Part shown: positions 7,686-64,000 of the stretch, in pieces
Layout: each line of letters starts with the position of its first letter
Position numbering within the stretch: position 1 is the stretch's first letter
Origin: Straminergon stramineum
Taxonomy: Eukaryota > Streptophyta > Bryopsida > Hypnales > Calliergonaceae
Direction: 5' to 3'
Assembly: GCA_963920665.1 (NCBI GenBank)
Contig: OY987266.1
Coordinates: forward strand, 3,043,001-3,107,000
Length of the DNA stretch: 64,000 nt
Notes under the pieces: model-generated
The model's input: only the letters and a program-made list of their open reading frames with translations
Told to the model about the DNA's origin: nothing
The model's database searches: none
Position numbers and translations under genes: made by a program

Positions 7686-8612
7686 CTCATAAAGGACCAA
7701 GGTGTGTTTTTTGGCAACATAATTTTTTGGGGCAGGTACATGTGAATAGAGATTTCCATGTTTTGGACCCAAACCTTAATAGAAGATGTGGACAAGGAAT
7801 ATCTTTCATATGCACTAAATTTCAAGGCATTTGGAAATATGAGGCAAAAGTTATGGCCTAATATGTAGTTTGTTTCTAAACTCAGGCAATCTGGACAGAT
7901 CTGAAAAAATCATTTTTTTCAAAAATAAAAATTTGAAATTGGTTTTCTAGATTTATATATACAGAGAAAGCTTTGAATCATTCCATTTTGATCAATGAGT
8001 CAAAAGTTATGAAATGTTTTAGTTTGTGGGCAAGTATAGATTCTCTACTCTAAAATAAACTTTGAAGTCCTTTATTTAACTCAATTTTCACTACTTCTTG
8101 AAAGAAAATAAAAACATGAGATGTAGATTGTTTATTACAACATTACAACCATTGGGATTGGGATTTTTCAATTCCATTAATAAATTGTTAACAATTTTGT
8201 ATTTTGAATCATTCTCTACATCTTTCTACTACTATTTTTTTCCTATATGTTGCACAATTCCAAATGATCTGAAAATTTTGAAGCATGTAGCCAACTTGCA
8301 TTGAAGAATGAATCTAAGGAAGCACCACCATTTTGGACATTTTCATACAAATGTGACCTTGTGAAGTGCAGCTACCTATTTTTTCACAGGGCCCAAAAAA
8401 AGATTTTTGTCACTTCAAATGCTAATATCTTGCAATCTTCATTGTGGAAATTTCTGGAATTTTTTTCACATCTTCTCAATTGAGTGTACTACAAGATCCT
8501 ATAGTTATATGTGTCCAAAAAAGATATTTTTCAAAATTTTGATACTTGTATTAGAAATGGCAGTTTTTTAGGGTTACTTTTTGGTGATTACATAGTCAAG
8601 GAACTTTAGGGG
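7686..8612. mobile_element. TTAA element, 0.92-kb family, copy 1 (927 bp)
   Basis: Flanked by TTAA (7682-7685) and a decayed CTAA (8613-8616). The ends are CTCATAAAGGACCAAGG and CCTTTAGGGG-like, that is a mutated CCCCTAAA terminus. The whole length is the reverse complement of the element at 12589-13513 (925 bp) at high similarity, for example CCACCATTTTGGACATTTTC at 8324. Short open frames inside have no recognisable motif. Confidence 0.85.
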
Positions 8613-8688
8613 CTAAACTAAATTCACTCCTTAGGATCTAAGAAGGGATTATTTCAATCTCTAAAGGGGGAATGATTTAGAATGGTAC

Positions 8689-9254
8689 TCCCTCCGTTCC
8701 AAAATGATCTTCTTGTTAGACAAAGTGTTCTAGATTATGGCTAAAAATAACATTTTTAAAGGCCATTTTGTAGTATAAGGAGGGTTGAGTGCACTTTTAG
8801 TGTCCTAAAAACTTTGAGTTTTAGAAACCTTTTCAAGGTGTAGTTTGGGAATATTGAAAAGTGAATTTTTTGGGGCATTTTCCAAGAACACCATTGGCAT
8901 ATAGTTGTTGAGTGTGAGGTTGTCATTTTGTAAGTAGTTAGTATATGTCCAACACCATATGTCGACCTCTATACCACCTCTAAAAGCTTCATTACCTTTA
9001 ATTAGGCAACACTCAAAGAGGTGCAAAAAATAAGAATGAATTGTGTTGATTGACCCCTTTAGTCATTCAATTTGTCTTTTGATTGATGATTGCATGGTTG
9101 GAAGGGAAACTATTGCTTGGAGTTGTTTTGCTAGTCCTAGGTAGCAATCGAAAGTCGAATTTGGCCAATTCTCAACATCATAGGGTGCAATAGAAAGATC
9201 ATTTTGGGACAAAAAATTGAGGCCAACAAGATGATCATTTTGGGACGGAGGGAG
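8689..9254. mobile_element. Stowaway-type MITE (566 bp)
   Basis: Terminal inverted repeats begin CTCCCTCCGTTCCAAAATGA (left) and end TCATTTTGGGACGGAGGGAG (right), flanked by TA at 8687-8688 and 9255-9256. This is the textbook terminus and TA target duplication of Stowaway MITEs, which plant Tc1/mariner transposases mobilise. No coding capacity. Confidence 0.93.
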
Positions 9255-9256
9255 TA

Positions 9257-11005
9257 TTAAACAATGTAAGCTACCTTTTCAATACAAAGAGCTACAATGA
9301 ATAAGAACTATTTTCTTTCCATGTCCAACCTCTTTCCTCTTTCATGCTTTGAAAGTAAAAACTAAATTGGGAAGAGAATAGAAGCTGAGTACTAGGGATG
9401 TTAGAATGATCAAATTATCATCCATCCAAGCGGTATTTTTGCTAAAATATCCACAAGTCAAAATAAAAATGAGACCAATTTGAAAAAATATATATTCCTT
9501 CAAATCTTGCTAAACGTTTCAAAAATAAAAAATAACAAGTTATCCCCCCTGAGGGTTAGGTGAAGAGTTTTTAAAACTACAGAATATTCTGTTTCTAGAC
9601 ATTTATTACTATGACCAACATTTTAAACTGGCTACAAATTTTAAAAAATGCTCATTTGCTATGATAAGGGTTAGATATTATTTTGAGATAGACTTGAAAA
9701 AAGTTCAGTACAAGGTGGCGGAGTTCCATGCAGGGGAAGGCCTCAATGGAGCTTCCCAACTGCTGCCACGTCAGCAGATTCCTGCCCTGAAACCTGCTTG
9801 AAACCTGCCTGAAACCCCGTTGATACCCCTCTTTGGAGAAAAATCTTTAAATCACTCCGTACCTCAAAAATCTCTGGCCTTTTCGCATGTTGGGAAAAGC
9901 TTTAAAGTAACAAAGAAACTTTTTTATGAAATCAATGTAAAGAACAAAATTTAATGATTGTGGTTGTGACACACATTGATAGTTTTGTAGGAAGAAAAAA
10001 AATAATTTTGGAGACCAACTATTGAGGGAATGGACTTTGTTGGCATAGGTGAGTAAGATATTTCAACTTTTGCTTTGAAAATTTGCATATTTCTTTCTAA
10101 CTTGAGACTCGATCCACATCTGAAGTCCCTGGCCAGATTTTTTTAGCAAAGGAACTTTGAGTTATGGGGCTCAAAAGCCCAGCAAAGCCATATCGTCAAG
10201 AGGCTAGTCAATCAGTCTTGAAGAGAATATTTTTATCACTTTGAATGTTCTACTCTCACATTCATTGGTTGCAAATCCCTTATTTTTTTTACATGTGAAA
10301 CTAATATTATGTCAATAATAAGAATCTTTGGTTATAAATTTTAAAAAGCGAAAAAAATTTGATACCAAAAGATATAGAGGTATATTATTTTTTAAAAGCG
10401 TTATTTTTTGGTAATTCTACTAGTATTTGCCAATTTTTGACACTTAGTAAATTCTAAAGATTAATCCAAAGAAGAAGAACAAGTAACAAGCTGTGGTCAT
10501 CAGACATATACTTATCTTATAATTGGATGAAAACATGCATTCTTCTATTCAACAAAAAAAGCACAAAGTCATTCATTGAATATGTTTTGACTAGCTAAAT
10601 AACTTATCAAGCTTTGTTGTACACCTAAACCTTTGTAATTTCATAAAATAGGCATTGAAAATGGATATGATTACAGGGAATTTTGTAATGTTGTGACAAT
10701 ATAGTGTTGCATGTAAATTATTAATTATTATTAATAGGTGGTTGAAAATTCATTTCATTGTTGTTGCACTCTTTTATTATTCCAGTGACAAACTTATGGT
10801 TGGAGATGATTTATGGATTGATGTATACAAAGACCATTTGTATTTTTTCAAGTTAGCACGCACTTCTATTCATGAGAGATTATGATTGATTTTAGGTACA
10901 CTTATTTAAAAATTCATACTTTGTCCAAAAAATGCATTCTATGAAAATCAAAACACCAGTTTGATGTCTAACATAGCATAAAAAGTTCTTTAATAGGAAC
11001 TGTAC
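9257..11005. other. AT-rich intergenic DNA, nothing assigned
   Basis: About 1.75 kb with no open frame of note and no clear terminal repeats. A short GC-richer patch at 9710-9830 carries three near-repeats of the phrase CCTGCTTGAAACCTGCCTGAAACC but no coding signal. Confidence 0.5.
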
Positions 11006-11008
11006 TCT

Positions 11009-11271
11009 AAACCCCGATTTAACTAATTATGGACAAATCTTCAAATTATGGACATTTTCTGTAATTGAAAATTTATCAGATGGTAGCTGACACTTGTCTA
11101 TTTTTTCTTTTAAAATTTTTTTCTTTGACCCAAAATATTGATTTTCATCCATTTTAAAATCAAAATTCTACATTTAGAAAGTATATCATATTTCACATTT
11201 CATCATTCACCTACAAATGCAATATTAATTATGGATTATGGATTTTTCCATAATTAGTTAAACATGGTTTT
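11009..11271. mobile_element. Unclassified MITE-like inverted-repeat element (about 263 bp)
   Basis: The left arm contains TTTAACTAATTATGGACAAA (from 11018) and the right arm TTTTTCCATAATTAGTTAAA (from 11243), an imperfect terminal inverted repeat of about 30 bp. There is no coding capacity. The target duplication cannot be read with confidence, so no superfamily is assigned. Confidence 0.6.
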
Positions 11272-11339
11272 CAATTGCTTACTTAGTCGATCTTAGGTAG
11301 TGTAACCTTACCAGAACCACCTTTTGGCTTCCAAGTAAA

Positions 11340-11625
11340 ACTCAAATCCATCACTTAATCTTCTTCTAATCAACATGCTTCAATATTAGGACATTTTTTG
11401 AGCCTCACCAACTATTTTTCCTTTGATTCCCATATTGAACCATTTATTCAAGTACCAAATTTGGTTATTTTCTCTATTTTTTACTCCAAATAGAAATTTT
11501 TGATAGATTTTTTCGCCGTTTTTTTTGCTGATGTTTTCAAATTACATCCAAATTTTTTCCCAATTCCACCAGCTCACTTTGAACTCATCACTGGGTTTTC
11601 CTAACACTGGTGTGCTGTTGAGAAA
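11340..11625. repeat. Dispersed repeat, copy 1
   Basis: Diverged but colinear with 44850-45125. Both contain ATTGAACC..TTCAAGTAC, GGTTATT.TCTCTATTTT, GATGTTTTCAAATT, CAATTCCACC and ACTGGTGT in the same order. The type is unknown; it is probably part of a larger degraded transposable element. Confidence 0.55.
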
Positions 11626-12408
11626 ATATCTATATTTTCGTAGGGGCCGGGCCATGATGCCACCCAGGTTTTAGTCTTGTAAAAAATTGGTGTGCATTTT
11701 CCGACGAGTACGGTACCAAAGTCACTTTGATGATTGATATCAATAGACCCCCAAAAGTCTCAACTGAGCGGCACAATGACATTGCAGCAATGCTTCAATT
11801 TTCAAACATGATCTGCTGCGATTGCTGTCTACAGTATTGCATTGTGCTATCAGGTTGTCGGACACTTTCGAAAAGAATTCCATGGGACCATGCAAAGCAT
11901 ATTCTTAGTTCTCAATGACTTTGTTTAATTTTCCATGGTTAAAATAAACAAAACGGGTTTGCTATCTAGGTACCTTGGAGATTGAAGCTATTTGTCAACT
12001 TGCGGATTTTTCACAGATTGAGGAGTTTGAGAGAAGGCATTTGCAAGTAGAATCAAGACATTCCGACAAGAAATGAATTTTCCGTGATTTTTCAAAGTTT
12101 GTTGTGAATAAATTGGTAAACTATGGGTAGGCCTATGGTAAATCACGTGCTAAATAATGTGGTCCCTCCCCCTAGTGCATTGTCATGATGCTAAAGGGTT
12201 GCTTAGATTGTGGTAATGGGTGGGTGACTGGTGTAAATGGGAGGGTCCAATAGATGTTCAAATTGGGTGACTAACGGCATAGGATTATTCTATCATTTAC
12301 CAAAAGCTATTTACAATCATGGAAATAGATGAAACATCCCATTTTCAAATACAATTTTCCACCATTTCTTGATTTTTTATAAAGATCTTTATACCATTGC
12401 TTTATTAA

Positions 12409-13557
12409 CCCTTTGATGTTGATGTGGACAAGAAGTGTCTTGATGAATGATAGAGAATCCTTCTATGTAAGACCAAAGTGTAAGTGTTCATCCTTGGAAT
12501 TTTGTGTGAGAAATGGAGGTCTTGCACAAGAGTTTGATTCCAAGGAACACTCTTGTGTTTTTTAAGCGAATGATCCACATGGTCTTAACCCCTAAAGTTC
12601 CTTGACTATGTTATCACCAAAAACCCACAAAAACTGCCATTTCTAATACAAGTATCAAATTTTTGAAAAATATCATTCTTGGACACATGTAACCATAGGA
12701 TCTTGTAGTACACTCGATTGAGAAGATGTGGAAAAAAATTCAGAAAATTCCACCATGCAAATTGCAAGATAATAGCATTTGAAGTGACAAAAATCCTTTT
12801 TTGGGCCTTGTGAAAAAATGGGCAGCTGCACTTCACAAGGTCACATTTGTATGAAAAAATGTCCAAAATGGTGGTGCTTCTTTAGATTCATTCTTTAATG
12901 CAAGTTGGCTACATGCTTGAAAATTTTTAGATCATTTGAAATTGTGCATCATATAGGAAAAAAATAGTAAGTAGAAAGATGTAGAGAATGATTCAAATTA
13001 CTAAATTGTTAACAATTTATTAATGGAATTGAAAAATCCTAATCCCAATGGTTGAAATGTTGTAATAAACAATCTACATCTTATTTTTTAATTTTTTTCA
13101 AAAAATATTGAAAATTGAGTTAAAGAAAGGACTTCAAAGTTTATTTTAGAGTAGAGAATCCATACTTGCCCGCAAACTAAAACTTCTCATAACTTTTGAC
13201 TCATTGATCAAAATGGAATGATTCAAAGCTTTCTATGTATATATAAATCTAGAAAATCAATTTCAAATTTTTATTTTTGAAAAAAATATTTTCTTCAGAT
13301 CTGCCCAGACTGCCCAAGTTGAGAAACAAACTACATATTAGGCCATAACTTTTGACTCATATTTCTAAATGCCTTGAAATTTAGTGCATATGAAGGAAAT
13401 TCTTCATCCACACCTTCTGTTAAATTTTGGGCCAAAAATATGGAAATCTCTAGTCACACGTACCTGCCCAAAAAATTTATGTTGCCAAAAAACACACCTT
13501 GGTCCTTTAGGGGTTAAAAAGGCTGATTTCCACGGTGATGAACCCGGCGCTCCAAGG
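12409..13557. mobile_element. TTAA element, 222-bp family, interrupted copy (220 bp net)
   Basis: Left end CCCTTTGATG after TTAA (12405-12408); right end CCGGCGCTCCAAGG before TTAA (13558-13561). It is split at a TTAA by the 925 bp element at 12589-13513. Removing that insert and one TTAA leaves 220 bp that aligns with the uninterrupted relatives at 20511-20733 (223 bp), 31072-31293 (222 bp) and 41643-41864 (222 bp). The shared right-hand phrase is GGCTGATTTCC. Confidence 0.85.
12589..13513. mobile_element. TTAA element, 0.92-kb family, copy 2 (925 bp)
   Basis: Ends CCCCTAAAGTTCCTTG and GGTCCTTTAGGGG, with intact TTAA on both sides (12585-12588, 13514-13517). It is the full-length inverted relative of 7686-8612. 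It sits inside a smaller TTAA element, so it inserted later. No transposase frame. Confidence 0.9.
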
Positions 13558-13765
13558 TTAAGCAATTAGACAATCTCAATCAAATATACTAAGTTTCAAT
13601 TTTTAAAAAACAACATCTTTCATTTGAATGATTTTACATGATAATTGAATAAAAATCATGGTTGATAAATTTTCAAAATATAATTGTAGAGACGTGTAGG
13701 AAATATCTATGTGCACATTTTTCCCCTAAAAAAAAGTCATAGAAGTTTTAAAATTCTCACTTTAA

Positions 13766-15598
13766 CCCCTGAAGTCCCATTTCTATTTAAAGGGCAAAAA
13801 GCATTTCAATTTTTTTCTGTGTATCTAACCTTAGGACCTTGCATTAGACTAGTGTAAGACTGTGAAGAAGAAATTTCAGAAACTTAAACTGCACAGATTG
13901 CAAAATATTTGCATTTAACCCCTCACCACCGAAGGCCCAAACAGCTCCAAAAACAGCATTCCTTTTGAAGTGTTATAAATATAAATTTTAAGAAGTTATA
14001 GAGATATCAACCATACGATCTTGTAGTGCACTTGTTGTAGATGGCTTCCAAAAAATTTGGTGTCATTTGACCGCATAGATTGAAAGATTATAATGTTTTA
14101 GTGTTGAAAAAGGATGCTGAAATTTTCCCAAAAACACATTTGGAGGTGAAATTCGGTTTCTTAAAATCTACTCAAATGAAGAAACTTTAAACCAATAAGT
14201 ATTCAAAATCAGCATACAAACACATTGATGAAAAAAAAATATCATTTAATTGACACATTGTGTCTGCAAAATGGCTTTGAAATGTCAAAAAACAGCAAGA
14301 AAAGTTGCAAAAACAACATCAAAAACTGAACCTCCTCCTACTAAAATGCTTCTCAGTCACTCATAACTTCTTAAATGGATATGAAATTTTGTACACACAA
14401 ACTAGACTAGTATGCGCAACTTTTCCAAAAAACATTATTGGAAAAAAACATTATATGAAGAAGAAACAAGCCACCAAAGTTCACTCTAATTCAAAAATGT
14501 CAGGATTTTGAACTTCGAATTGCTCCCAAACATTCAAAACAATTTGGATTGGCCTGAAAATTCTACCACAATAACTAGACTTCAAGGGGAGCACAACCCA
14601 AATTTTTTTTATTGAAAACGAACATTGGATGAAGGAGATACAAGCCCCCGAAGTTGCAGCCATCAAATGTAGTTTGGTGAACTTGAATTGAACTTGTAAA
14701 CTTCAATTGGCTTCCAAAAATTTAGTACATCTTGGATGGATCTGAAAATTTTACCACAAACTAGAAGAGAGAGCGCAACTTTTCCAAGTTTTATTGGATT
14801 CAGACATCTGATGCAAAAGTTACAAGACTTTGAATTTGACCTGAGGATACTTTTCATCCCCTTCGGCAGTGAGGGTTTAAAGTGCAACAATTAAGTTTTA
14901 TTGCACCTTGCTCATGTAGATTTTTTGACTTTAAATATTTCTAGCTTAAAATTTTGCAATAATAATTTTGAATTTATAATTTCTTATCTTGAAGAATTGA
15001 GTTGAGGGTCTAGGATTCTTTTGTAAACACGTATTTCATTTTCGCTCATTAAAAAATTGTTAAGTAGAAGTAGGTTTAAGATTGAAGAGAAACTAAACCA
15101 AAAATAGCTCTAAGATGGAATTGGAACATACAAATCTCAATAGTGAGATTGTTCTAGCAAGAGATAAAATCCTTTTGAAATTTCTTTTTTATAAATTTTA
15201 TAAATTTAATTTAGAAATGAATCCTACAAGTCATTTTTTCAACAAGGTGCTCTAATTGACTGAAAAACAAGATTGTCCATAACTTTCACATCACTAGTCC
15301 AAATGGAATGAATCAAAGTTTCCTATGTAGATAAAAACACGATCTATGACAAAAAAAAATTTGAATATTTTATATTTTAAGTTTTTGTGGGTATTTTTTT
15401 CTTGCTTGCCATACTAAAATTTGGGCTTATTGTGCCATAATTTTTGTTCTTTGGCACCAATTAAAATAAAAATTATATTCCCACAAAGCTAATGTTTTTT
15501 TCTATGTTCTCAAATATTTTAGAAAACTAAGACAAATGTTGAGACTGTACAAGCCTACCCAAAATCCATTTTGTTCCTCAAGCTTGGAACTTTAGGGG
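13766..15598. mobile_element. TTAA element, 0.92-kb family, copy 3, itself interrupted (about 870 bp net)
   Basis: Left end CCCCTGAAGTCCC after TTAA (13762-13765); right end GGAACTTTAGGGG before TTAA (15599-15602). The two outer parts align in order with the 12589-13513 element, for example TTGCAAAATATTTGCATTT against TTGCAAGATAATAGCATTT, and the AAAATGGAATGATTCAAAG phrase. A 958 bp element of another family is inserted at 13919. Confidence 0.8.
13919..14876. mobile_element. TTAA element, CACCGAAGG family, copy 1 (958 bp)
   Basis: Ends CCCCTCACCACCGAAGG and CCTTCGGCAGTGAGGGT, inverted with 14 of 17 positions matching. Flanked by TTAA at 13915-13918 and 14877-14880. It is inserted in the 13766-15598 element. 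The first 500 bp match the element that begins at 63511. Confidence 0.85.
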
Positions 15599-16015
15599 TT
15601 AAAGAGTTCAATGTTTAGGTGTTGCATGCCTAAATTTTGGAAATTGATATCTATGAATTGTGACTAATTTTGTATAGGTCTTTTAGAATAAAAATACGAA
15701 TTAGTTTGCCAAATTTTAGTTACAATATGCATATCTATTTTACAAAATATGGGCATGTAATACCCATTCAAACATTGGACTCTCTAAATTGCAAATTTTT
15801 GAAAAAAATTGAGATTTTTTCAAAAGAAATAGACTTCTACCCATTTCTAAATTCCAATACCTCCAAGCAATTGGATTTTGTTATGCACCAATGACAATTT
15901 CTTAATCAATTATCATGTAAAATCATGAAATTTCACCAAAATGAAGTATAAAAAAATAAAATTTGACTTTGGTATGCTTGGTTGAAATTGTATAAAAATG
16001 AGTGGTGTGAAATTT

Positions 16016-20505: not shown

Positions 20506-20510
20506 TTTAA

Positions 20511-20733
20511 CCCCTAAACAACGTGGTGGACGTTTTTTGTCTGATGAACATTAAGGAATTTTCCTTTGTAGGATAAAATTGCAACTATTCATCCTCAGAA
20601 TTAGGGGTGGAAAGGGGAGATTTTCTATAGTAGTTTGACTCACAATGAATATTTTTGCTTTTTTTTAAAGTAGATGATGTCACACGGTTCTAAAATGGCT
20701 GATTTCCAGGGTCACCAGCCCGGCATTCAAGGG
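20511..20733. mobile_element. TTAA element, 222-bp family (223 bp)
   Basis: Left end CCCCTAAACAACGTGG after TTAA (20507-20510); right end CCCGGCATTCAAGGG before TTAA (20734-20737). Contains the family phrases GGACGTTTTTTGTCTGATGA, GTAGATGATGTCACA and GGCTGATTTCCAGGGTCACC. Non-coding. Confidence 0.87.
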
Positions 20734-21472
20734 TTAAGCTCAGCAAATTAAAAATTCCATGTGAACATTAATGCAAATGTCTGTTTTTTGGGTAGCCAGA
20801 ATGCCGGGTTGTCCATTTTTCCTTGCCAAGTTACCATGATCATGGATTTATCGTTGAAGGACTTGGTCGGTCACCTTGGCAGGTGTGACCCAGCCAATCC
20901 TTTAAGCTTAAAAAAAAGGATTGGGTCAGCCACAATGTTGAGCCACAATGTCCGCAAAAAATGACCTCAAGTAATATTTGACTACGAGTCATGCAACCCA
21001 AGTGACTGCTGCTTTTCATACACTAGGGGGGCGGTGTATTTTTCTCATCATCGTGTGCCTCGTGGCAATCCTGAGCTGATCGTGCGAGTAAGTTCATACG
21101 AACGATTATTAATTAAAGTAGTTGGCGTGCGACCTGTTGTTTTCACAAGCCGGGGCTGAAATGGACATTAACTTACTCACTTCACACACAGAAGACCTTT
21201 TTAATTTCTTTGTCATGTAACTTAAAGTTATGAAAGTTATGAAAGTAACATTTTACAGTGAATGAAATTGGAGATGAAATCATGAATTAGGGAAAGCAAT
21301 GGGGAATAAGGTATCATGAAAGTTGAGCCTTGTTATGAGAAATAACATGTGGAGTCACGGATTGAAGTGGTGATTGAGGGATTCATTATTTTTTTTTAGA
21401 AGCAGAGGCTCTTACTACCTTCAGGTTATTAGACACAACCTCAATAGTTGCATCTTTTTCAATCTTGTTTAA

Positions 21473-21718
21473 CCCCTCAAGATCCAAGTAGTTTTTGTAC
21501 TTTTTCACAAGTTTGAACTTTGATTGATAGTATGCATTGTACATCAAGCTTATTACATGAGGTCAATTGTACTTTTGAACTTCCCCATTCAATATGAACA
21601 TCATAATATCAAATTTACTTAGATACACTTCTTAGAATGTAAGGAAATTAATGAAGTGATAACTTTGATCTATTGAACAAGTAAGAGGTCCAAAATAGGT
21701 TCCTTGGGCCTTGAGGGG
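21473..21718. mobile_element. TTAA element, CCCCTCAAG type (246 bp)
   Basis: Left end CCCCTCAAGATCCAAG and right end CTTGGGCCTTGAGGGG form an inverted repeat matching at 14 of 16 positions. TTAA at 21469-21472 and 21719-21722. No internal similarity to the other families was noticed. Confidence 0.85.
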
Positions 21719-21722
21719 TTAA

Positions 21723-23755: not shown

Positions 23756-23759
23756 GCAT

Positions 23760-25478: not shown

Positions 25479-25530
25479 CACTACAAGAAAATGGACAAAT
25501 ATGTGACTGCAAAAGAATGACTCCACGGAA
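25479..25530. mobile_element. Possible CACTA-type transposon end
   Basis: CACTACAAGAAAA at 25479-25491 matches the common terminal motif of plant CACTA (En/Spm) elements. It is followed by short GTGACTNCA-like subterminal repeats. No matching opposite end was found in the window, so this may be a solo or decayed end, or chance. Confidence 0.4.
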
Positions 25531-27310: not shown

Positions 27311-28599
27311 GAGTTCAAAATGTCTCAGACTACTGCAAACCTACTCTACTACTATTTCAATGCCTTGTCTATTGTGATGCACTACACAATTTCCAAACAT
27401 CTTGCATACCTTTCATTACACTTACTCTACATCTATAGCACGTTTTCATATTTGACACATATGACAAGGATGGACAAAATTTAGAAAGGATGTTAAAAAA
27501 TGTCAAAGAAAATATCTTTTCTAATACCTATCCCAAATTTGTCCATAACTTTTGATTTCGGGATCAAAATCTAAAACAAATTTTTGGAGATGAAAGTGAC
27601 ATTGATTTTCCAACTTTTATTTGTTTGGAGTATTTTGAAAACAATTAATCTTCTATGCCTAAATGAAGTTTGAAATATTACTTGTAACATAATTCCTGCG
27701 TTTTACAAATCCCACGTGGTTTGTCTTGCTTCCTACCAGCCCAAATGTATAAAAGTCTTGTCACTTGACCATTTCATGCCAACCCACTACTTGGCCTGAC
27801 AAGCCTAGTGACAAATGTGCCAAGTATGGCGTTTAGTGTATGGTATTCTATGTTTGGTGAATTATATTGTGTATGGTGTATTGCTTCGGAACTCTGATTG
27901 TTAACACGATCTCACCTCTGTTCTCACACTAAAATGTAATAAAATATAAGATTGAAATCCATATTTAAATCATTTTATATATTTTAACTACAGTAGATTC
28001 AATTAAGGTCATAAATGATGTTTGACCACACGCCAATGGTATTGGTCTTCCAGGGGTTAAATGGAAACAAATACTCGAAATTATTGATATTGGAATACGG
28101 GTTCTCTAAAAGCGTCCAGAATCTGATACCGGTATTCTAAGAATGTCCTGAAACGCAATCCTCCTCTGGAACTGCTCCTACTGTAACGTAATGGTCATTT
28201 CCTTTGTGGAGGAACGCAGCTAAACACTCGCACAAAAAATGAGGATCAACCGAAGAAAATTACAACAAGAAGTCGTATACACTAAGCTAATTTATAATAT
28301 CAATACTTTCACCTAGTCAGAGGAAAGGGCTGATCATGTTATATTATCTAATGTGGCTCGCACATTCAGGCACAAATTTTAACTTTAAGGTTTCCTCCAT
28401 CCATCCAGAATGTCTCCGAATGAGGGAAAAATTGACCCTCATGAATCAGAAGTCACAGAAAGAGACGGACTCATCTGATGATGATATTCCAAATACTCTT
28501 GGAACCATCTACGGAGTCACCCGGATGCATTAGGCACCTCGACAATAGGGGAACACAGGTGATCCCGCAAATTCACGTATTCGGCAACATACATATGAA

Positions 28600-30895: not shown

Positions 30896-31315
30896 CTACA
30901 CTCAATAGGGGTATTAAGGGGACCCATACTAATTAATTGACATTTCACACTACATAAATATCTACCTTTATTATACATTAGTAGTTATTGAAGTGTCCCG
31001 CATGTGTACATTTTGTTTCAAACATCTACAATTTTCCATGATTAGTCCCTTTAATTTTTTGGTCCCCTTAACCCAATAAGGATGATCTAGACCAAAGTGG
31101 TCCAATGGATGACAAAGAACTATTACATGTGACATAGAAGTGCTATTGTTCATCCTTGGAATTTTGTTCAAAAAAGGGGAGGTCTTGCATAGTAGTATGA
31201 CCTCTAATTATTACTTTCGGGTTTTTTGAAGTAGATGATTTACATTGTTTCAATAAAGAAGATTTCCATGGTGACCAGCCCGTCCTTACAGGGTTAATAC
31301 CCCTATTTAGTGTAG
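30896..31315. mobile_element. MITE with AATAGGGGTATTAAGG ends, interrupted copy (194 bp net)
   Basis: Terminal inverted repeat CTACACTCAATAGGGGTATT on the left, answered by the complement ending AGTGTAG on the right. It is split at the TTAA within its right-hand repeat by the 222 bp element at 31072-31293. Removing 222 bp and one TTAA leaves 194 bp, exactly the length of the intact copy at 41382-41575. Confidence 0.87.
31072..31293. mobile_element. TTAA element, 222-bp family (222 bp)
   Basis: Starts CCCAATAAGGATG after TTAA (31068-31071) and ends CCGTCCTTACAGGG before TTAA (31294-31297). Shares GTTCATCCTTGGAATTTTGT and GTAGATGATTTACA with its relatives. It is inserted in the MITE at 30896-31315. 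Confidence 0.9.
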
Positions 31316-31600
31316 ATCATGCACTAAGGGTAGTTCACTTCAATTGCAAATTCTTGCAACTAAATAGTTAGTGCATAGTGAAGGGGTAGTGCTTGGTGAA
31401 TGCAATGTCCATGCTAATTTTTGCCACGTATAATTAGTCTTTCTTTCCATTTGTAGTACAAATAGTGATGGAGTTGGCAACTTTGGACATATAAATTTAT
31501 TCCATTTCAGAATATATTCTTCAAATTTTTGAATGACTTTGCAAGGACACTTTTTCCACAATGTGTTGGAGATTTATCTTCAAGAGCTCTTAATATTTAA

Positions 31601-32242
31601 TCTCTAATGCCCGAGGCATCATATTTGGGTGTTGACGGAACTTTGAAGTTGAATAAAATCTTAGTAAATACTATTTTTGATACTTTTTTTTAAAGAAAAA
31701 TATCCTTTCAAGTCTCTTTTAAGTGCCAAAAATCTAATTTTTGAAAAAAATTGTTTATGATTTTTCTAATGAAGATTTTGTGCAAAGGGGGCCATTGCAG
31801 ATCTTGATTTTTGTGTTTAAGGCTCATGGAGGTGAGCTTCAAATACTTTGGATCTTGAGGGGACAATCACATCCAACTAAATTCAGTAAAAAAAATTGTA
31901 GAGTAGATTTTGAGAATTTATAACCTTATTATAGTTTTGCATGTATTTTCTTTTAGACTAATATTTTTTTCTTGACCTCAATTTTAGATTTGACATGTAA
32001 AAAGTGGATTGAAAGACTTCAAATCACTTTCATAGTTTTAGCACCTTCTTCATCAAACATTATAATCTCTTAAACCACAAGTAATATTGTTGTATTTTCT
32101 TTAATTTCCTATGTGATCCATCATGACACATTCATATGGTTACAATTTTTAATTTTTTTTTCACACTAATCAAAAATTTGGCTTTTTGTTTAGTTTTGAG
32201 CAAACTTCAAGAAGCTCAAAAAAGGTCTTAAACATTTAGGGG
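31601..32242. mobile_element. TTAA element, 0.64-kb family, copy 1 (642 bp)
   Basis: Left end TCTCTAATGCCCGAGGC after TTAA (31597-31600) is a mutated form of the CCCCTAAATGCCCAAGGC end seen at 38693. The right end ACATTTAGGGG precedes TTAA (32243-32246). The interior matches 38693-39328 throughout, for example TATGATTTTTCTAATGAAGA and GTAGATTTTGAGAA. Same orientation. Confidence 0.85.
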
Positions 32243-32246
32243 TTAA

Positions 32247-35365: not shown

Positions 35366-35371
35366 CCTTAA

Positions 35372-35513
35372 ACCCTTAAATGTCAAAGCGGACGTTTTGT
35401 GTTTGATGGATGACTTTACTATTAACTATAGAAAAGCATAATGCACCTATTGGTCGAATAATCAAAGCAGTTTTGCTGACTACTTCGGTCATGGGGTCTT
35501 TGTCTTTTAAGGG
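35372..35513. mobile_element. TTAA element, 222-bp family, internally deleted (142 bp)
   Basis: TTAA at 35368-35371 and 35514-35517; ends ACCCTTAAATGTC and GTCTTTTAAGGG. Keeps the family phrase GGACGTTTTGTGTTTGATGG at the left but lacks about 80 bp of interior. Confidence 0.7.
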
Positions 35514-35636
35514 TTAAGTATACCTTATAATTGTCCTTGCAATGCACACTATTTTCGGTAGCCTCTTTGAGGATTTTCCCTTCAAAAATAGGAGTCGAGT
35601 TTTAAGAGTGCTTCATTTTGGGTGTAGTTACCTTAA

Positions 35637-36207
35637 CCCCTAATCACTCCGATGTCCATTTTCTGGACTATAAACAAATTGAAACTTGAGTTTCATCCTC
35701 TAATTTGCTTAGATGAAAGTTATTCTAATTTGTGGAGATACTTTATTAAGTTATTTTCCTATCTAAGGGTTGGATTTGGTGTTACTAGAATATACATTTT
35801 TCTAAAATTACAAATGTGCAAGGATGTCAAGTGGTCAAATTGCAATGACTTTAGTTCAAAACTAGATTTGCCAAAATGAGGTCATAGATTTGACGAACAC
35901 AAAAATTTCAAAAACTCACCATATGAAGAGAACCTCATTTCAAATCCATTCCAACAAATTTCACTAAAAAAATTGATAATATTTTTCTTGTAATCAAATT
36001 TTGAAGGAATTTTGGAATTTCTCTTTCAAAATTTATACAAAAAAGATTGGTCATAGCACTAGTGATTCTAACCATACAGATGGAATCTCCAAATCAAAAT
36101 CTACAACTTTTATTTGTATGTCAATTCCAAAATATGCTTCCAAATAGTACTTTATAATGATTTTTCTCAAATCATCAATTTTGGAGATGAATCTGGACGT
36201 TTAGGGG
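35637..36207. mobile_element. TTAA element, 571 bp
   Basis: Left end CCCCTAATCACTCCGATGTCC and right end GGACGTTTAGGGG, with TTAA at 35633-35636 and 36208-36211. Only the outermost seven or eight bases are cleanly inverted. The interior is unlike the other families. A 75-codon open frame inside has no recognisable motif. Confidence 0.75.
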
Positions 36208-36338
36208 TTAATTGCTTTCGATGGTTTTGAAATTGGGTGACAACAACTGGGCCTAATAGAAAGTGAGCCTAAAAATATCAATTTTGTAAGCTTTTACTAA
36301 ACTTCGGCCCACATGTGGTGCTTTTGGCCCTCGAAGGG

Positions 36339-39599: not shown

Positions 39600-39839
39600 C
39601 ATTTCTGAAATGTTCGCTTGTATTCAAAAAACTTTCCCCCTACTACTTTGAATGCTAATATTTTCCAATCTGTATGGTCAAAATTGATAAAAACATTTTA
39701 CCTCATGATCTCATACAAATATAGTACAAGATCTTATGGTTAAAGTTTTTAAATTTAAATTTTTTTTCTTGAATGAATGCAATAGAAATGGCAATTTTGA
39801 GTGATTTTTGACAAAAAATAGGCCTTGGCCCTTTAGGAG
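39600..39839. mobile_element. TTAA element, 0.92-kb family, truncated end
   Basis: The right end GGCCTTGGCCCTTTAGGAG precedes TTAA (39840-39843). The preceding 200 bp resemble the right part of the 7686-8612 element: ATACAAATATAGTACAAGATCTTATGG and AATAGAAATGGCAATTTT have close counterparts there. The left part is missing or unrecognisable. Confidence 0.55.
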
Positions 39840-39843
39840 TTAA

Positions 39844-41380: not shown

Positions 41381-41381
41381 T

Positions 41382-41575: not shown

Positions 41576-41642
41576 AAGTGTTTCTTCAAAAAGCATACAT
41601 ATTGATTTGGAGATGTACACAAAGTGAAGATGGTGGTTTTAA

Positions 41643-41864
41643 CCCTTGAAGGATGGAGTGGTGCCCGTGGAAATCCTCCCTTTTGGAAAGATGTGACATC
41701 ATCTACTTTATAAAATCCAAAAATAATCATTGGAAGTCATACTATTGTAGAAGACCTACACTTTTCTCACAAAATTCCAAAGATGAATAGTCGCAGTTCT
41801 GTCCTACATAGAGAGATTCTTTGTCATCCATTGGACACAAAACGTCCATGTCGACGTTTAAGGG
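41643..41864. mobile_element. TTAA element, 222-bp family (222 bp)
   Basis: Starts CCCTTGAAGGATGG after TTAA (41639-41642) and ends CGACGTTTAAGGG before TTAA (41865-41868). Opposite orientation to 20511-20733. Shares GATGTGACATCATCTACTTT and the complement of CCAAGGATGAAC. Confidence 0.87.
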
Positions 41865-41922
41865 TTAAGCAGGGTGTAATTTCGGGTGTGCCCCCTTGAG
41901 AGCCAACCTTGTAAGTTATTAA

Positions 41923-42295
41923 CCTCTAAACAATGGGCTGGTCACTGTGGGGGAGAGGTGGGCTGTGAATAGTAACAATAAGTGTACTAACTGCAGAAGA
42001 AGGCACTATTCCTATGCTTGCAAAAGTCAGCATCCCATGTTGCCCTTCCGGAAATTGAAGGAAGGGTAGCATGCGGCCTAACACCATCTTCTGATTCTCT
42101 TTGCCATCTTGACACAATTTGACTTATCCAAAAATGACAATGCATTCAATAAGGCTAATTCTAGCTTTTCATGATAGTATACTTCTGCAAGACTACAATT
42201 AAAAAAAACCCGGATGAAAAACGGCTTGTTTACATCTTGCAAATTACTTTTCTGACATCCATCGGACATAAAATGTCCGCAACGTCGTTTAGGGG
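41923..42295. mobile_element. TTAA element, longer relative of the 222-bp family (373 bp)
   Basis: TTAA at 41919-41922 and 42296-42299; ends CCTCTAAACAATGGG and CGTCGTTTAGGGG. Its right end (CATCCATCGGACATAAAATG) resembles that of 41643-41864, but the interior differs and is longer. It lies only 54 bp from that element's right TTAA. Confidence 0.8.
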
Positions 42296-43039
42296 TTAAA
42301 CTCCTTAAAAATAATACCCATCACCACACCGCAGGCTAAATTTCAATTGCCTCAAGGTTATTCCTATCTATCCCCCATCTAGGGAAGAGTCGCCACTTGG
42401 TCCTTATCCAACATAAACAGATATCGCCAGGTGGCTTCCTCTTCAGACCATGTGCATGGTCCACCATGTGGCTCCCCTTAGCCTTCTTCTTTTTAGCAGA
42501 GGGTTCCCGAATCAGGGAATCGAGGGCCTGGATGCAAACACACAGACTCACGCACACAAGGACTCACCGCATTTTTTCATCTTCTTCTGCACGTCTCCTC
42601 CCCCTTATAGCTGCAGAGCAATCATCCCTTTTCCGCAACCTCGACTGACAACGTATTGGTAAGTAGTTTGTACTGGATTGATATGTTTTTTGAAAGTCAT
42701 TCGAAATCTTTATTGATCATACAGTCACAGTGCACAACAGTTGATGGTTAGTTTGGTGAATTTTATGTCCATGGTTATGTCTCTAACGATCGTTGCATCA
42801 TAGTGTGCAACATCCGTTTAGTGCGTCAAGTTTCGCAACAGTTCTGGGCATGGTCGTATCAGAGATCGTGACTTGAAATGGGGATTTGTGGTTGTGGGGT
42901 TTTGTGGTTCTGGAGAGGGTTAGCATTGACAGAGTTTTACGTTTGTGGGTTTGGTTGAATTTGCATCGGTTTTGGTTATTGGCAGAAGCTCATTCTTGCT
43001 GATGTTATGTCACAGGTGAGTGTCTTGGTTGGATTAAAG

Positions 43040-54455: not shown

Positions 54456-54458
54456 TAA

Positions 54459-54866: not shown

Positions 54867-55391
54867 TTAACACTAACTGTCAAGAGCACTAGCATTACTA
54901 ATGTTACCAACATTAGATGTCAACATGAACACTACTTGTCTTCTATTGCTCTAAGCACATAAAAAATAAAAGCTCTAACACACCTCTTTCTCCACGAAAC
55001 TTCAGCCAAGACAAAGACAAACGGCAAAAATTCTATTCAATACGACTCCAAAGCATGCATGGGGTGATCAGAAATAACCTTAGAGTGAGGGGAGAGAATT
55101 GATCGCTAATATAGGACGGCCGCTGTTGTCGGTCGCATACAAAACCATCGACCCTTCACGAAACCCATAATATTTTGGGAGCATCCATCAACGTTGAACA
55201 AGTAATGATAACAAGCTGACCAAAGTCTGCAAAGTCCGACTCGATTCACCTCACTATCTCATTCCACCAATAAGTCCTTCAATAGTGCATACATTGTGCT
55301 CCTAACATCGTACTAAAAGCTAAAGGGGATATCCAAGCGTCCACCTCCTTTCAAAATTATATCTTGAATGCTAATTTTCGTGCAAAATTGC

Positions 55392-57828: not shown

Positions 57829-59049
57829 CTAAACTTGCAAAAGTTGGCTTTCAGACCTTGAAGAATTGCTTCTTGCTCTGGAGCTTTCCCTGGCCACCTG
57901 ACAGAACAACTTGACAGAATCCTCAGGTGTCCCTTGAATAACACCGTGACCCACATTCAGTATATGTCTTCTCACCCCAGCATCCCTAATATTCTCCTCC
58001 ACCGTCTTCCGAATGGCTTCCTCAGGCCCAAACAACACCATAGGATCCACATTACCTTGCAACACAGTCTTCTCTCCCAACTGTTCCCTGGCTTCTCGCA
58101 TCTCAATAGCCCAATCCAAGCCAACAACAACGTCCTGGTGTTTCCTGTCCGCCACAATATGCAGCTTCCCTGTTCCACCATTCGCATGAAAAATCAATGG
58201 CACATCGGGATGCTTGGCTTTCACTCTTGCTGTGAGTTCCTCTGCATATGGCCAACTAAACTCCCGAAATTGTTGGGGAGACAAATGGTGCGCCCATGAA
58301 TCAAAGAGCTGGACAATTTGTGCACCAGAGTCGATCTGGTGGGATACATATACCACGAGCATCTCTGTTAGATGTTGCAAAAAGGAATGGAGAATTTCAG
58401 GGTTATGTTGCATGATGGACTTGGTTTTCACCAAGCTCTTGTCTGACATTCCTTCCATGGCGTAAGCAGCCAGCGTCCAAGGGGTACCAACAAAACCTAT
58501 TAGAGTTGAGCTACCGCCAATTTCCTTTCGGAGAGATGAAAGAATCTCCCGAATGAAGGGGAGAGATGAGTCTGGGTCATCTAGGGTTTTGAGTTTCTTG
58601 ATAGCTTCCAGAGTGCGAATAGGGGAAGAGATGACCGGGCCTTTGCCCTTGACCATGGTGAAGTCGATGCCGAGAGCGGGCAAGGGGGTTAAGATGTCGG
58701 AGAACATGATGACGCCGTCGGTGTGAAAAGCTTTCCATGGCTGGAGAGAAAGCTCAATGGCAATCTCAGACGTTTCGGAACGCTCACGGAAGGAAAGCTT
58801 GTCGGAGAATTTGCGAAAATCCGCCATGTAGCGACCTGCTTGGCGCATGAGCCACACGGGAGTGCGCTCGGCGTCCTCACCACGAGCAACGCGAAGAAGG
58901 AGAGGAGCAGGGGCGCCATTGCATTGGATGGGTGTAATCCTAACGCTCCCCGTAGATGAGCCACATTGCGCAGACAAAGAGGAAGACGAAGGAAAAATTT
59001 CAGTGGAGGTGCAGTGGAAACAGCCACTGAGCGCCATCACAGCAGCCAT
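57829..59049 (-). CDS. Uroporphyrinogen decarboxylase, plastid-targeted, intronless
   Basis: Converts uroporphyrinogen III to coproporphyrinogen III in the haem and chlorophyll pathway (HEME/UROD). The 406-residue frame starts at the ATG at 59049 (MAAVMALSGCFHCTS); an in-frame GTG 12 nt upstream is not needed. The first 45-50 residues are Ser/Thr-rich and poor in acids, a likely chloroplast transit peptide. The enzyme follows: RTPVWLMRQAGRYM (signature 1), SDILTPLPALGIDF with its conserved aspartate, GFVGTPWTLAAYAMEG (signature 2), FDSWAHHLSPQQF, LQGNVDPMVL and HILNVGHGVIQGTPED. Length and motif order are complete. There are no introns, unlike the neighbours, suggesting a functional retrocopy or an ancestrally intronless gene. 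Head to head with the ceramidase-like gene, 748 bp apart. Confidence 0.97.
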   Translation of the reverse strand: MAAVMALSGCFHCTSTEIFPSSSSLSAQCGSSTGSVRITPIQCNGAPAPLLLRVARGEDAERTPVWLMRQAGRYMADFRKFSDKLSFRERSETSEIAIELSLQPWKAFHTDGVIMFSDILTPLPALGIDFTMVKGKGPVISSPIRTLEAIKKLKTLDDPDSSLPFIREILSSLRKEIGGSSTLIGFVGTPWTLAAYAMEGMSDKSLVKTKSIMQHNPEILHSFLQHLTEMLVVYVSHQIDSGAQIVQLFDSWAHHLSPQQFREFSWPYAEELTARVKAKHPDVPLIFHANGGTGKLHIVADRKHQDVVVGLDWAIEMREAREQLGEKTVLQGNVDPMVLFGPEEAIRKTVEENIRDAGVRRHILNVGHGVIQGTPEDSVKLFCQVARESSRARSNSSRSESQLLQV

Positions 59050-59797
59050 TGCTCTCTCCACTTGATCCTCGTTCTCCTCCTCCTACGAAGCTCTCCCTTC
59101 GGACTTCAAAAACACGTTATCCAAAACAAAAATTCAGAAAAATTTGCGAATCGCGTATATGGCATTCCAGAAAAAAAGTGCCACCGTTAAGGATTCGGAA
59201 AGATTGAGATAGGAATCTGTTACAAGAGCTCTCAAGACATCCTCTCATAGCAAAAACCCGAATAAATCACAAACAGAAGCAGTCAAATTCTACCACAGCT
59301 TCGACATAAAAAAGCTTCGAAAATATGTGCCAACACCAAGTGTGAGATACTCACTGAAAACATTGCCAAGGTCCAGAACAAGAACTACAGAAATTTTGCG
59401 AACCCAATTCAGTCTCCGAAATTGTTGAGCGGGACGTGCAAGTGGTGAAAAGATCTCCCAAACTGGATTAGGTTTATCTGTTGCTGTTCCAATCGTGTTC
59501 CCCAGTCTCTTGAACTGCCAGTGGGTGGGGGGGGGGGCAGTGCCACTGAAAGAGGGAATGCGATATCATCCATCCACATTCATCTCGTCGGGGTCCACAC
59601 GCTCCTAGGCTCCCTGACTTTTGAATTTCCTCCCAAGCTTGGAAGTCTTGTCCATTCTCCCAGACCCATTTCAGCGATGGAATCGAAACCCTAGATTGAT
59701 CCATCACTTGTTGTAGCTTCTTTCGCACGTCAATTTGATCGTGGTGCTGTTGATTTTGCATTTGATTTTTTGCGCTAGTTCAAGGATTGCGGGAGAG
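59050..59797. promoter_or_regulatory. Divergent promoter region between UROD and the ceramidase-like gene
   Basis: 748 bp separates two start codons pointing apart, so both promoters must fit here. A telo-box-like AAACCCTAG lies at about 59686-59694 and an 11-bp G run at 59527-59537. A 95-codon minus frame (59474-59761; MQNQQHHDQIDVRKKLQQVM and so on) occupies the ceramidase-side half; it has no recognisable domain and could be a chance frame or an unrecognised exon. Confidence 0.5.
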
Positions 59798-62065: not shown

Positions 62066-63506
62066 ATCAGGGGAAGAATGTTGGAAACGCTATTTTTCTG
62101 ATAAAGGGAGTAAAAAGTAGAAGTTTGGGGGGGGGGAAAGAAAGGAAAATATATTTTAAACTAAAATTGTATTTTCTGTGAAATGTCAAAGTGGAATTGT
62201 AGAAATGCCCATTTCTGTCATTTAGAGGTGACTGTTTCCATATTCAAGTACACCCTGAAACATCACCTAACATTGGGTGGAGGCCCTTCAATTGTGGGGG
62301 TTTCACATCACCTCTAACAAATTCTCATTCTTTTTTTAGGGGACGGATTCATGTAGGTGATGGAAGTTAGGGGACGGAAATCTGTGCTTCCATCTTGATT
62401 TTAGGGTTTGTATACTTTTCTGTTTTTAGACACTTGAGACAACCACTTCAATTTCAAATGACAATCAATTGCATATTGAACTTTTGCCAATAGATACCAG
62501 TTTGTTTCATCAATTAGTCCTGAAATGATTTTGAAACAATGCATGTGGCCAATTTGTATCTTGTGAATTACAAAGACTTCAGTTTTACAATGCAGATTGG
62601 ATGATGCGATTTCACTTGTTTTCTTTGTTGAAGTATTGTTGATGGTTACACCAAGTCATACTACTAAATTCAAGCCATCTAGACTGCTTTGGGATTTTGC
62701 ATGATACTGTATTCTAATTCCACCATATAATATGTTATGGTTACTCCTTTTTGTTTATCCCAATTTTGTAAATGATGCACCCTATATTACTTGAAAATAC
62801 TAGTAATTTTAATTTATTTATACTTAAAAAAATACACCCAAATACAATCATTCAATATGCAAGCATTACATCAAACAAAACTTGACTTGAAATTGAAACA
62901 ATAAATTGAAACTATTTGCCTCTACAAATGTAGCATTAGTATTGCAATTGTATTCCTTGGCAGTTTGTCTAAAGGTGTATACAAGAGTAAAAAGGTTTGT
63001 TAATATTTTTTAATTCCGTAGAATTAAGGGAATTTTCTGTCATTTACATTCAACAAAGCAATGGAAATTATCTTGGTGCACCTACAATGTAATGCCCCTA
63101 ATACACCATATGGATGTTGAGAAGGGCTATTTCTTGGAACATTGGGTTCCAATATAGATTTTCATTTATTTGTTTTTCCAAGTTTGAAACAACTTTTCTA
63201 CTTTTGTGTGCTAAATATCTATTGTAGATATTTTCCAAGCATTTTTCAAAGAAATTGGGTGTTCATTCTTAGTTACAAATTACTAACAAAATACCAAACT
63301 CTTCATGAAACTCACAACCATTTACCCCCCTCTTCCCTAACACCCTATCCTTGTTTGAAATTTTGAACACTTCTACTAACATCTTTATATAATTAATATT
63401 ATTTTCCTTAATTTTTTCAAATTGATTGTAGAAAAAGCTTACTTCATAAAGATTCAAATATTACTTTAGATGAACTATGAGATATTATTTGAACAAAACA
63501 TTGCCC
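62066..63506. other. 3' flank and intergenic DNA, nothing assigned
   Basis: Begins as the likely 3' UTR of the ceramidase-like gene, with a 9-bp G run near 62129. It becomes AT-rich. Open frames at 63142-63366 (plus) and 63269-63457 (minus) have no recognisable motif. Confidence 0.45.
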
Positions 63507-63510
63507 TTAA

Positions 63511-64000
63511 CCCCTAAAAGGGTCTAAAGATATCATTGCTTTTGGAGTGTTATAGATCAAAATGCCACTTAGGTATAGAAATCTCAACCGTACAATCTTG
63601 TAGTGTACATGTTGTAGATGACATGAATCAAATTTGGAGTCATTTGGCCACGTAGATTGCAAGATTATAATGTTTTAGTGTTGAAAAAGGATGCTGAAAT
63701 TTTCCTAGTAACACATTTGGAGGTGAAATTTGATTTCTAAACCTACTCAAATGAAAAAACTTTAAACTATAAAGTGATTTAAAACCATTGTACAAACGCA
63801 TTGGTGAAAAAAAATATCATTCAATTGACTCATTGTGTCTATAAAATGGCTTTGAAATGTCAAAAAATAACAAGAAAAGTTGCAAAAATCACATCAAAAC
63901 CTAAACCTCCTACTAAAATGCTTCTAAGTTCCTCATAACTTCTTGGATTGAAATGAAATCTTAGACACACAAACTGGACTAGTATGCACAACTTTCCCAA
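63511..64000. mobile_element. TTAA element, CACCGAAGG family, copy 2, cut by window end
   Basis: Starts CCCCTAAAAGGG after TTAA (63507-63510). From about 63540 it follows the 13919-14876 element closely, for example ATTATAATGTTTTAGTGTTG and TGAAATTTTCC. The right end lies beyond the window. Confidence 0.85.

What the first reader, a model, noticed from the sequence alone, without database searches (positions are those of the whole stretch)
7686..64000. A multi-family population of TTAA-flanked, CCCC-ended short elements in a plant genome
At least fourteen non-coding elements of 142-958 bp lie between TTAA tetranucleotides and begin CCCCTAAA or a near variant, with the complement at the other end. 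They fall into at least five families by interior sequence: about 0.92 kb (7686, 12589, 13766), 0.96 kb (13919, 63511), 0.64 kb (31601, 38693), 222 bp (12409, 20511, 31072, 41643, plus variants), and singletons (21473, 35637). Different interiors sharing one terminus and one target suggest one transposase mobilising many non-autonomous lineages. TTAA duplication plus CCC-start termini is the known signature of piggyBac; Kolobok, Sola3 and Novosib also use TTAA. To my knowledge such a proliferation is little described in plants; that is an impression, not a search result.
Basis: partly seen in the sequence, partly recalled or inferred. Interest (0 to 1): 0.88.

Follow-up and report, generated by a model that had tools for sequence, protein, structure and literature searches.

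The report
Native piggyBac transposons in a moss
The short repeats in this stretch of a moss chromosome look like stripped-down copies of piggyBac jumping genes, a group known mainly from animals, and the same moss genome also carries full-length copies that still encode the enzyme.

Summary
The window has 15 TTAA-flanked, mostly CCC-ended non-coding elements, 14 complete, far above simulation. Three empty sites in the window, and a fourth element elsewhere in the same target repeat, show TTAA duplicated on insertion.

The host is a moss by a UROD tree. Its 326-Mb assembly has 22,935 perfect TTAACCCCTAAA against 147 reversed controls, and 118 matches to the piggyBac transposase domain, 14 without an internal stop. 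Of 20 transposase loci whose flanks I extended, 12 have TTAA plus such termini on both sides, 4.5-6.4 kb apart. Window elements a and c share both ends, in register, with one such family, whose three full-length copies are 97.7-98.9% identical.

So piggyBac is supported. 'One transposase for all' is not: termini largely follow transposase clade, by inspection. The 222-bp, 0.64-kb and k families' full-length partners were not found. Species unnamed; activity untested.

The parts
7682..8616 (-). element a, 0.92-kb family (927 bp between target copies TTAA and CTAA)
   Evidence: 848/918 identical to element c; both ends alignable to transposase-bearing elements L011/L013/L014
12405..13561 (+). 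element b, about 220-bp family, split by element c at an internal TTAA
   Evidence: joined b aligns with f, h and m, which are uninterrupted there; right end TTAA at 13558-13561
12585..13517 (+). element c, 0.92-kb family (925 bp), nested in b
   Evidence: TTAA CCCCTAAAGTTCC ... GGTCCTTTAGGGG TTAA; shares ends in register with L011/L013/L014 (114/139 and 97/116; E 1e-46 and 7e-18)
13762..15602 (+). element d, divergent 0.92-kb family member (867 bp), interrupted by e
   Evidence: homologous to c once e is removed; no BLAST match to the ten full-length elements at E 1e-3
13915..14880 (+). element e, 0.96-kb family (958 bp), nested in d
   Evidence: one target copy (TTGA) in the empty homologues a and c, two TTAA here. 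Relationship to full-length elements unclear: terminal 31 bp resemble L020 (24/31), but the only BLAST matches are short subterminal pieces of L033 and L029 (E 2e-6)
20507..20737 (+). element f, 222-bp family
21469..21722 (+). element g, 246 bp, single copy in the window
   Evidence: termini CCCCTCAAGNNCCAAG; 15/16 terminal match to L009/L018, no longer match
31068..31297 (+). element h, 222-bp family, inserted into another repeat
   Evidence: empty copy of the target repeat near 41400 has a single TTAA: GGTCCCC-TTAA-TACCC
31597..32246 (+). element i, 0.64-kb family (642 bp); left end degenerate (TCTCTAAT)
   Evidence: 457/604 identical to l
35368..35517 (+). element j, about 142 bp, possible deletion variant near the 222-bp family
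   Evidence: 44 bp of the left end match the 222-bp family profile, E 2e-4
35633..36211 (+). element k, 571 bp
   Evidence: single in the window; an 82% copy lies at transposase locus L026
38689..39332 (+). element l, 0.64-kb family (636 bp)
   Evidence: identical 18-bp termini CCCCTAAATGCCCAAGGC on both sides
41639..41868 (-). element m, 222-bp family
41919..42299 (-). element n, 373 bp, longer relative of the 222-bp family
   Evidence: 89 bp at one end match the 222-bp profile, E 1e-9
63507..64000 (+). element o, 0.96-kb family, cut by the window end
   Evidence: 410/487 identical to e
7492..7515 (+). lone left end, TTAA CCCTTAAAAGTTC, no convincing partner
28037..28060 (-). lone right end, TTAA CCCCTGGAAGACC, no convincing partner
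39645..39843 (-). right-end fragment similar to the 0.92-kb family
   Evidence: profile match E 2e-17

Best explanation
The elements are non-autonomous piggyBac-superfamily transposons (MITEs and somewhat longer deletion derivatives) resident in a moss nuclear genome. Full-length piggyBac elements of 4.5-6.4 kb in the same genome encode a DDD transposase. It should bind the CCC-start terminal inverted repeats, cut the element out and insert it at TTAA, duplicating TTAA (general piggyBac mechanism, inferred here). Several transposase lineages coexist, with terminus variants that largely follow the lineage, and non-coding derivatives ride on them. Shown: TTAA duplication, termini, transposase genes inside elements with the same kind of termini, conserved catalytic triad, near-identical full-length copies at different places. 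Inferred: that these enzymes moved these window elements, which enzyme moves which family (except the kinship of a and c with the L011 family), and precise excision.
For: Ends above chance. Empty sites in the window: e in d, c in b, h in a repeat, plus the same target repeat hit by a 0.64-kb element at L005. Genome counts 22,935 against 147 and 5,844 CCCCTAAAGGACCA against 0. PF13843 matches at 118 places, best E 7.8e-79. 12 of 20 extended loci have TTAA plus termini on both sides. Window a and c share both ends in register with L011/L013/L014, scores 72-153 against at most 21 in 30 shuffles. PDB sequence matches: piggyBat E 2.7e-25, piggyBac 6x67 E 2.9e-21. DDD: 30/30, 29/30, 30/30 over the 30 loci aligned. 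L011/L013/L014 are 97.7-98.9% identical in two long pieces each.
Against: 104 of the 118 transposase matches have at least one internal stop, so most copies are decayed. No transposase-like match in the parts of the window scanned (7400-30000 and 31300-42300, six frames). 8 of 20 extended loci lack one or both recognisable ends of their own. The 222-bp, 0.64-kb, g and k families have no BLAST match at E 1e-3 to the ten full-length elements compared; short best-of-many matches scoring 20-35 are near the shuffle level. Element e points to L020 by its tip and to L029/L033 by a subterminal piece. The shared ends of c with L013 are 69% and 78% identical, so that family is a relative of c's parent, not the parent. 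A TA duplication inside an obligatory TTAA cannot be told apart by sequence alone. Movement was not observed.
Confidence: 0.94

Rival explanations
1. One single transposase mobilises all the non-coding lineages.
For: Nearly all termini share a CCCYTNAA-like start and TTAA; cross-mobilisation between close variants is plausible. L026, in the AAAGG clade, has a nearby end reading AAATG, a possible exception to the clade rule.
Against: Transposases fall into several deep clades, and by inspection terminus type (AAAGG-; CAACGCC/CACCGCC-; CCCCAAAATGACC; CCCATTAAGGTCC) follows clade in the tree. Termini were known for 14 of the 30 loci there, four of them from one end only. L012, L030 and (one end) L037, read later, carry AAAGGACC as expected.
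Confidence: 0.1
2. The elements belong to another TTAA-using superfamily (Kolobok, Sola3 or Novosib).
For: Same TTAA target (Kolobok from PMC9587614; Sola3 and Novosib recalled). A land-plant review lists Sola1 from Physcomitrella (PMC9033089, passage).
Against: Kolobok termini are 5'-RR, here mostly 5'-CCC. Elements with these termini carry PF13843, and a and c share both ends with them. No Kolobok, Sola or Novosib transposase search of the genome was made.
Confidence: 0.03
3. TA- or TWA-target plant MITEs (Stowaway, Tourist) that happen to prefer TTAA.
For: A TA duplication within TTAA gives the same empty-site string. Tc1/Mariner and PIF/Harbinger are standard plant MITE superfamilies (PMC12550479, passages).
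Against: 14 of 15 unconditioned ends carry full TTAA (listings); in the window, 22 of the 28 best interior-only hits have TTAA against 1 other xTAx (the profile was trained on these same ends). The transposase inside elements with such termini is piggyBac.
Confidence: 0.02
4. The 222-bp lineage is a separate TTAA system with termini that converged on the same form.
For: None of its members has a BLAST match to the ten full-length elements; its ends carry their own subterminal motifs.
Against: Same CCCYTNAA-like terminus and TTAA duplication. Only 10 of at least 116 transposase loci were compared end to end, so its partner may lie among those unread.
Confidence: 0.1

Closest known systems
piggyBac (Trichoplusia ni, PDB 6x67) and piggyBat (PDB 9c0f)
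   Same: Transposase matched by sequence, PF13843 domain, DDD triad, C-terminal Cys-rich tail, TTAA target, CCC-start termini
   Different: Host is a moss; elements are 4.5-6.4 kb against 2,472 bp for the classical element (PMC10813416 passage); L011-type proteins have a long repetitive N-terminal part
Coral CMITEs and AmiPB elements (PMC2872659, passages read)
   Same: Short non-coding TTAA elements with CCC-start ends, several families beside full piggyBac elements; CMITE-III end CCCCTCAGTGTCCG and AmiPB2 end CCCTTTAACGCCC resemble the moss ends
   Different: Coral CMITEs are about 100 bp with one conserved interior; the moss families are 142-958 bp with mostly unrelated interiors, in a plant
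PiggyBac row in the fern Ceratopteris repeat table (PMC6890710, passage read)
   Same: piggyBac annotated in a seedless land plant
   Different: 1,230 copies, 122,417 bp, given as 0.00% of the assembly; the passage read describes no termini, target or transposase
Stowaway and Tourist MITEs
   Same: Short, non-coding, high-copy plant elements
   Different: TA or TWA targets (recalled) and other transposases

Membership tests
piggyBac superfamily | TTAA target-site duplication | tested here: met
   three empty sites in the window and the L005 site
piggyBac superfamily | 12-19 bp terminal inverted repeats with a CC[C/T]T terminal motif (wording from PMC2872659) | tested here: met
   21 of 29 ends start CCCCT or CCCTT (sequences), as coral CMITE-III (CCCCT) does; repeat length was not measured family by family: 18 bp identical in l, shorter and imperfect in others
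piggyBac superfamily | PF13843 transposase with DDD triad in elements with the same kind of termini | tested here: met
   118 matches; 12 of 20 extended loci with both ends; DDD in 29-30 of 30
piggyBac superfamily | C-terminal cysteine-rich domain | tested here: met
   Cys pattern in the C-terminal consensus of 24 aligned proteins, visible in L011, L013, L014, L025 and L029; the L024 frame ends before it
piggyBac superfamily | window element shares extended ends with a transposase-bearing element | tested here: met
   both ends for elements a and c only
piggyBac superfamily | the same for the 222-bp, 0.64-kb, 0.96-kb, g and k families | tested here: inconclusive
   terminal resemblance only, or (e) a short subterminal match, among ten full-length elements
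piggyBac superfamily | footprint-free excision | not testable with these tools
   needs an excision assay or population data
Kolobok | 5'-RR termini (PMC9587614) | tested here: not met
   26 of 29 ends start with C
Sola3 / Novosib | own transposase type | not tested
   no search of the genome for those transposases was made
Stowaway (Tc1/mariner) | TA duplication with free flanking bases | tested here: not met
   14 of 15 unconditioned ends carry TTAA (listings)
Tourist (PIF/Harbinger) | 3-bp TWA duplication | tested here: not met
   four-base TTAA on both sides with symmetric termini

The most novel reading that the evidence does not exclude
A land plant carries a native piggyBac system of several coexisting transposase lineages, at least one recently active, each with its own terminus class and its own non-coding followers, together of the order of ten thousand or more insertions (22,935 perfect ends, at two ends per insertion); mosses would then be a natural plant setting for TTAA-specific, possibly footprint-free transposition.
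Probability: 0.6. Interest if true: 0.75.

Novelty: new member of a known kind. Interest (0 to 1): 0.66.

Why it matters
A land-plant TE review lists six TIR superfamilies without piggyBac (passages read, PMC9033089), and a survey of MITEs in 207 plant genomes, four of them bryophytes, uses five superfamilies plus the Micron group and has no occurrence of the word piggyBac in its main text (passages read, PMC12550479). A TTAA population of this size with transposase genes that include open ones would add a superfamily to plant MITE classification, and would offer a plant-native counterpart to the insect piggyBac used in rice (PMC10905368, passages read). It also gives one genome in which co-evolution of termini and transposases can be tested over several lineages.

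Tried and rejected
Transposase in the window: six-frame Pfam scans with stops as X over 15600-30000, 7400-15620 and 31300-42300 gave only a sub-threshold RMI2 match. The rest of the window was not scanned that way. Rfam and tRNA scans found nothing; tandem-repeat rows were not relevant.

Partners for the lone ends at 7492 and 28060: none convincing; 39843 could pair with 38689. Missing ends for L010, L015, L021, L024, L025 and L027: none convincing; for L010, alignment with c suggests that the end lies just beyond the stretch read. The end first seen at L024 proved to belong to a neighbouring 0.92-kb copy. L016, which showed one possible end, was not followed.

Naming the moss: the UROD tree puts it among mosses but does not name it. 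Literature on Sola3 termini: the original paper is not held. The only moss-genome hit for 'piggyBac' (PMC10619864) was the word 'piggybacking'. Not done: structure prediction (a locus from the genome search is not on that tool's list of accepted sources); the genome count of TTAACCCCTAAAGGACCA and of whole-element copies (not completed).
Full report
OBSERVATION. The window contains 394 TTAA. Counting both orientations, 10 ends have an exact CCCCTAAA next to TTAA, 9 a 7/8 match and 7 a 6/8 match; fifty third-order Markov simulations give means of 0.0, 0.34 and 3.16. Pairing gives 15 elements, 14 of them complete. Over the 29 ends tabulated, positions 1, 2, 3, 5 and 7 of the terminus (C, C, C, T, A) are each shared by 26 to 28 ends, and the rest varies by family.

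TARGET DUPLICATION. Element h lies in another repeat whose second copy near 41400 has exactly one TTAA where h has two. Element e lies in d; the homologues a and c carry a single TTGA at that point. Element c lies in b; the uninterrupted relatives f, h and m lack it. In the wider genome, locus L005 has a 0.64-kb element in the same TTAA-bearing end of the same kind of repeat, with TTAA on one side and TTTA on the other. A TA duplication inside an obligatory TTAA would give the same letters. That the outer bases matter is shown by plus-strand CCCCTAAAGGACCA sites listed without regard to flanks: 14 of 15 are preceded by TTAA, one is not (listings, compared by eye).

HOST AND GENOME. The uroporphyrinogen decarboxylase gene at 57829-59082, one open frame of 417 aa, groups with Physcomitrium and Sphagnum in a nine-row set supported 100/99, apart from the liverworts. 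Other genes (NAC, SOUL and ribosomal L24e, 4 of the 7 proteins given to having matches with UROD; sub-threshold RMI2 exons) fit a land plant. The assembly has 326,016,511 bases in 59 contigs, and the window lies on C4.

GENOME-WIDE. TTAACCCCTAAA occurs 11,474 + 11,461 times against 57 + 90 for the reversed pattern. CCCCTAAAGGACCA occurs 2,980 + 2,864 times against 0 + 0. The first eight matches, all near the start of C1, each have a facing end at 577-953 bp, two of them sharing one; sizes near 645, 950 and 577 match the window's 0.64-kb, 0.92-kb and k families (no chance control). Whole-element copy counts could not be had.

TRANSPOSASE. PF13843 matches at 118 places (116 candidates scored of 473), best E 7.8e-79; 14 of the 118 have no stop inside the match and 104 have at least one. 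The tool's 14 control genomes gave none. I extended the flanks of 20 of the 30 loci fetched. Eleven showed no end in the first 1.5 kb and were picked by rank or open frame (L010-L014, L017, L021, L024, L026, L030, L037): six have TTAA plus termini on both sides, L010 has one with the other apparently just past the stretch read, two have one end, and two have none of their own. Nine were picked because one end was already seen (L009, L015, L018, L020, L023, L025, L027, L029, L033): six have both. So 12 of 20 have both ends; in L012 more than one right end is possible and I took the one at 7399. Lengths between the targets run from 4,459 to 6,423 bp. L011, L013 and L014 are 97.7-98.9% identical in two long pieces and sit at different places, each with TTAA on both sides, which points to recent movement. 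The L011 protein matches piggyBat (E 2.7e-25) and piggyBac 6x67 (E 2.9e-21). The three catalytic aspartates are present in 30, 29 and 30 of 30 loci; L024 has N at the second.

LINK TO THE WINDOW. Elements a and c share both ends in register with L011/L013/L014: for c, 114/139 and 97/116; BLAST with L013 E 1e-46 and 7e-18, 78% and 69% identical. That family is thus a relative of their parent, not the parent. For the other elements the evidence is weaker. The best matches score 22-35 against 19.5-25 in 30 shuffles, but each is the best of up to 40 comparisons, so only their position at the very tip is informative: g's tip fits L009/L018 (15/16) and e's fits L020 (24/31). Element e also has short subterminal BLAST matches to L033 and L029 (E 2e-6), which belong to another terminus class. 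The 222-bp, 0.64-kb, g and k families have no BLAST match to the ten full-length elements. The end read at L026 (AAATG type) resembles the 0.64-kb ends and is a lead, not a finding.

SEVERAL LINEAGES. In a tree of the 30 domains with 39 database proteins, AAAGG-type, CAACGCC/CACCGCC-type, CCCCAAAATGACC and CCCATTAAGGTCC termini fall in different supported groups. This is by inspection. Termini were known for 14 of the 30, four of them from one end only (L010, L015, L025, L027). L012, L030 and L037, read later, agree; the single end near L026 does not. Unnamed environmental proteins interleave with the first group, so other hosts probably carry relatives. The search needs shared five-residue words, so absence is weak evidence.

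LITERATURE (passages or listings only). A land-plant review lists six TIR superfamilies without piggyBac (PMC9033089, passages). A 207-genome MITE survey has no occurrence of piggyBac in its main text (PMC12550479, passages). Four moss papers in the listing show zero occurrences (PMC9247546, PMC7466625, PMC11704416, PMC13120521; listing only). On the other side, a review lists PiggyBac among plant superfamilies (PMC10794571, passages), another paper says it was isolated from plants (PMC10813416, passages), and a fern repeat table has a PiggyBac row of 1,230 (PMC6890710, passage). The claim of novelty is therefore limited: I saw no description of a TTAA/piggyBac population in a moss in the listings of searches, which cover open-licence papers only.

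MECHANISM. Best reading: transposases of several piggyBac lineages bind CCC-start termini, excise and insert at TTAA; deletion derivatives and unrelated fillers with compatible termini multiplied. Termini, target duplication and enzyme genes are shown. Enzyme action on the window elements, precise excision and present activity are inferred.

Noticed in passing
window 47068-50784 and 55388-57232: Large inverted duplication (99.5-99.7% identical pieces of 832 and 993 bp) repeating parts of one gene region, with about 1.9 kb missing from one arm.
   Followed up: no
window 41360-41600 and 30880-31330: A different short repeat with about 30-bp inverted ends (like CTACATTGAATAGGGGTATTAAGGGGACC) that contain TTAA; such repeats were hit by piggyBac-type elements twice in what I read (h here, and L005).
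   Followed up: partly
window 23697-24518: An 822-bp stretch that is an imperfect palindrome (68% over 848 aligned columns), possibly a foldback element; no clear target duplication in the ends printed.
   Followed up: partly
L011, L013, L014: The transposase N-terminal part has a Glu/Gln/Gly-rich repeat whose length differs between near-identical copies (frames 948, 906, 918 aa).
   Followed up: no
termini, window and genome: The terminus CCCCTAAA contains CCCTAAA, the usual plant telomere unit (recalled). Whether this is coincidence was not tested.
   Followed up: no
database proteins P0122-P0154: Many unnamed environmental piggyBac proteins, 35-70% identical to L011, interleave with the moss lineages in the tree; their hosts are unknown.
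   Followed up: partly
joined L026 locus, positions 2399-2977: An 82% copy of window element k lies about 0.7 kb from the transposase domain of L026, inside or beside that element.
   Followed up: no
joined L026 locus, position 6481: The only end found near this AAAGG-clade transposase reads CCCCTAAATG, like the 0.64-kb family; a possible lead to that family's full-length partner.
   Followed up: no
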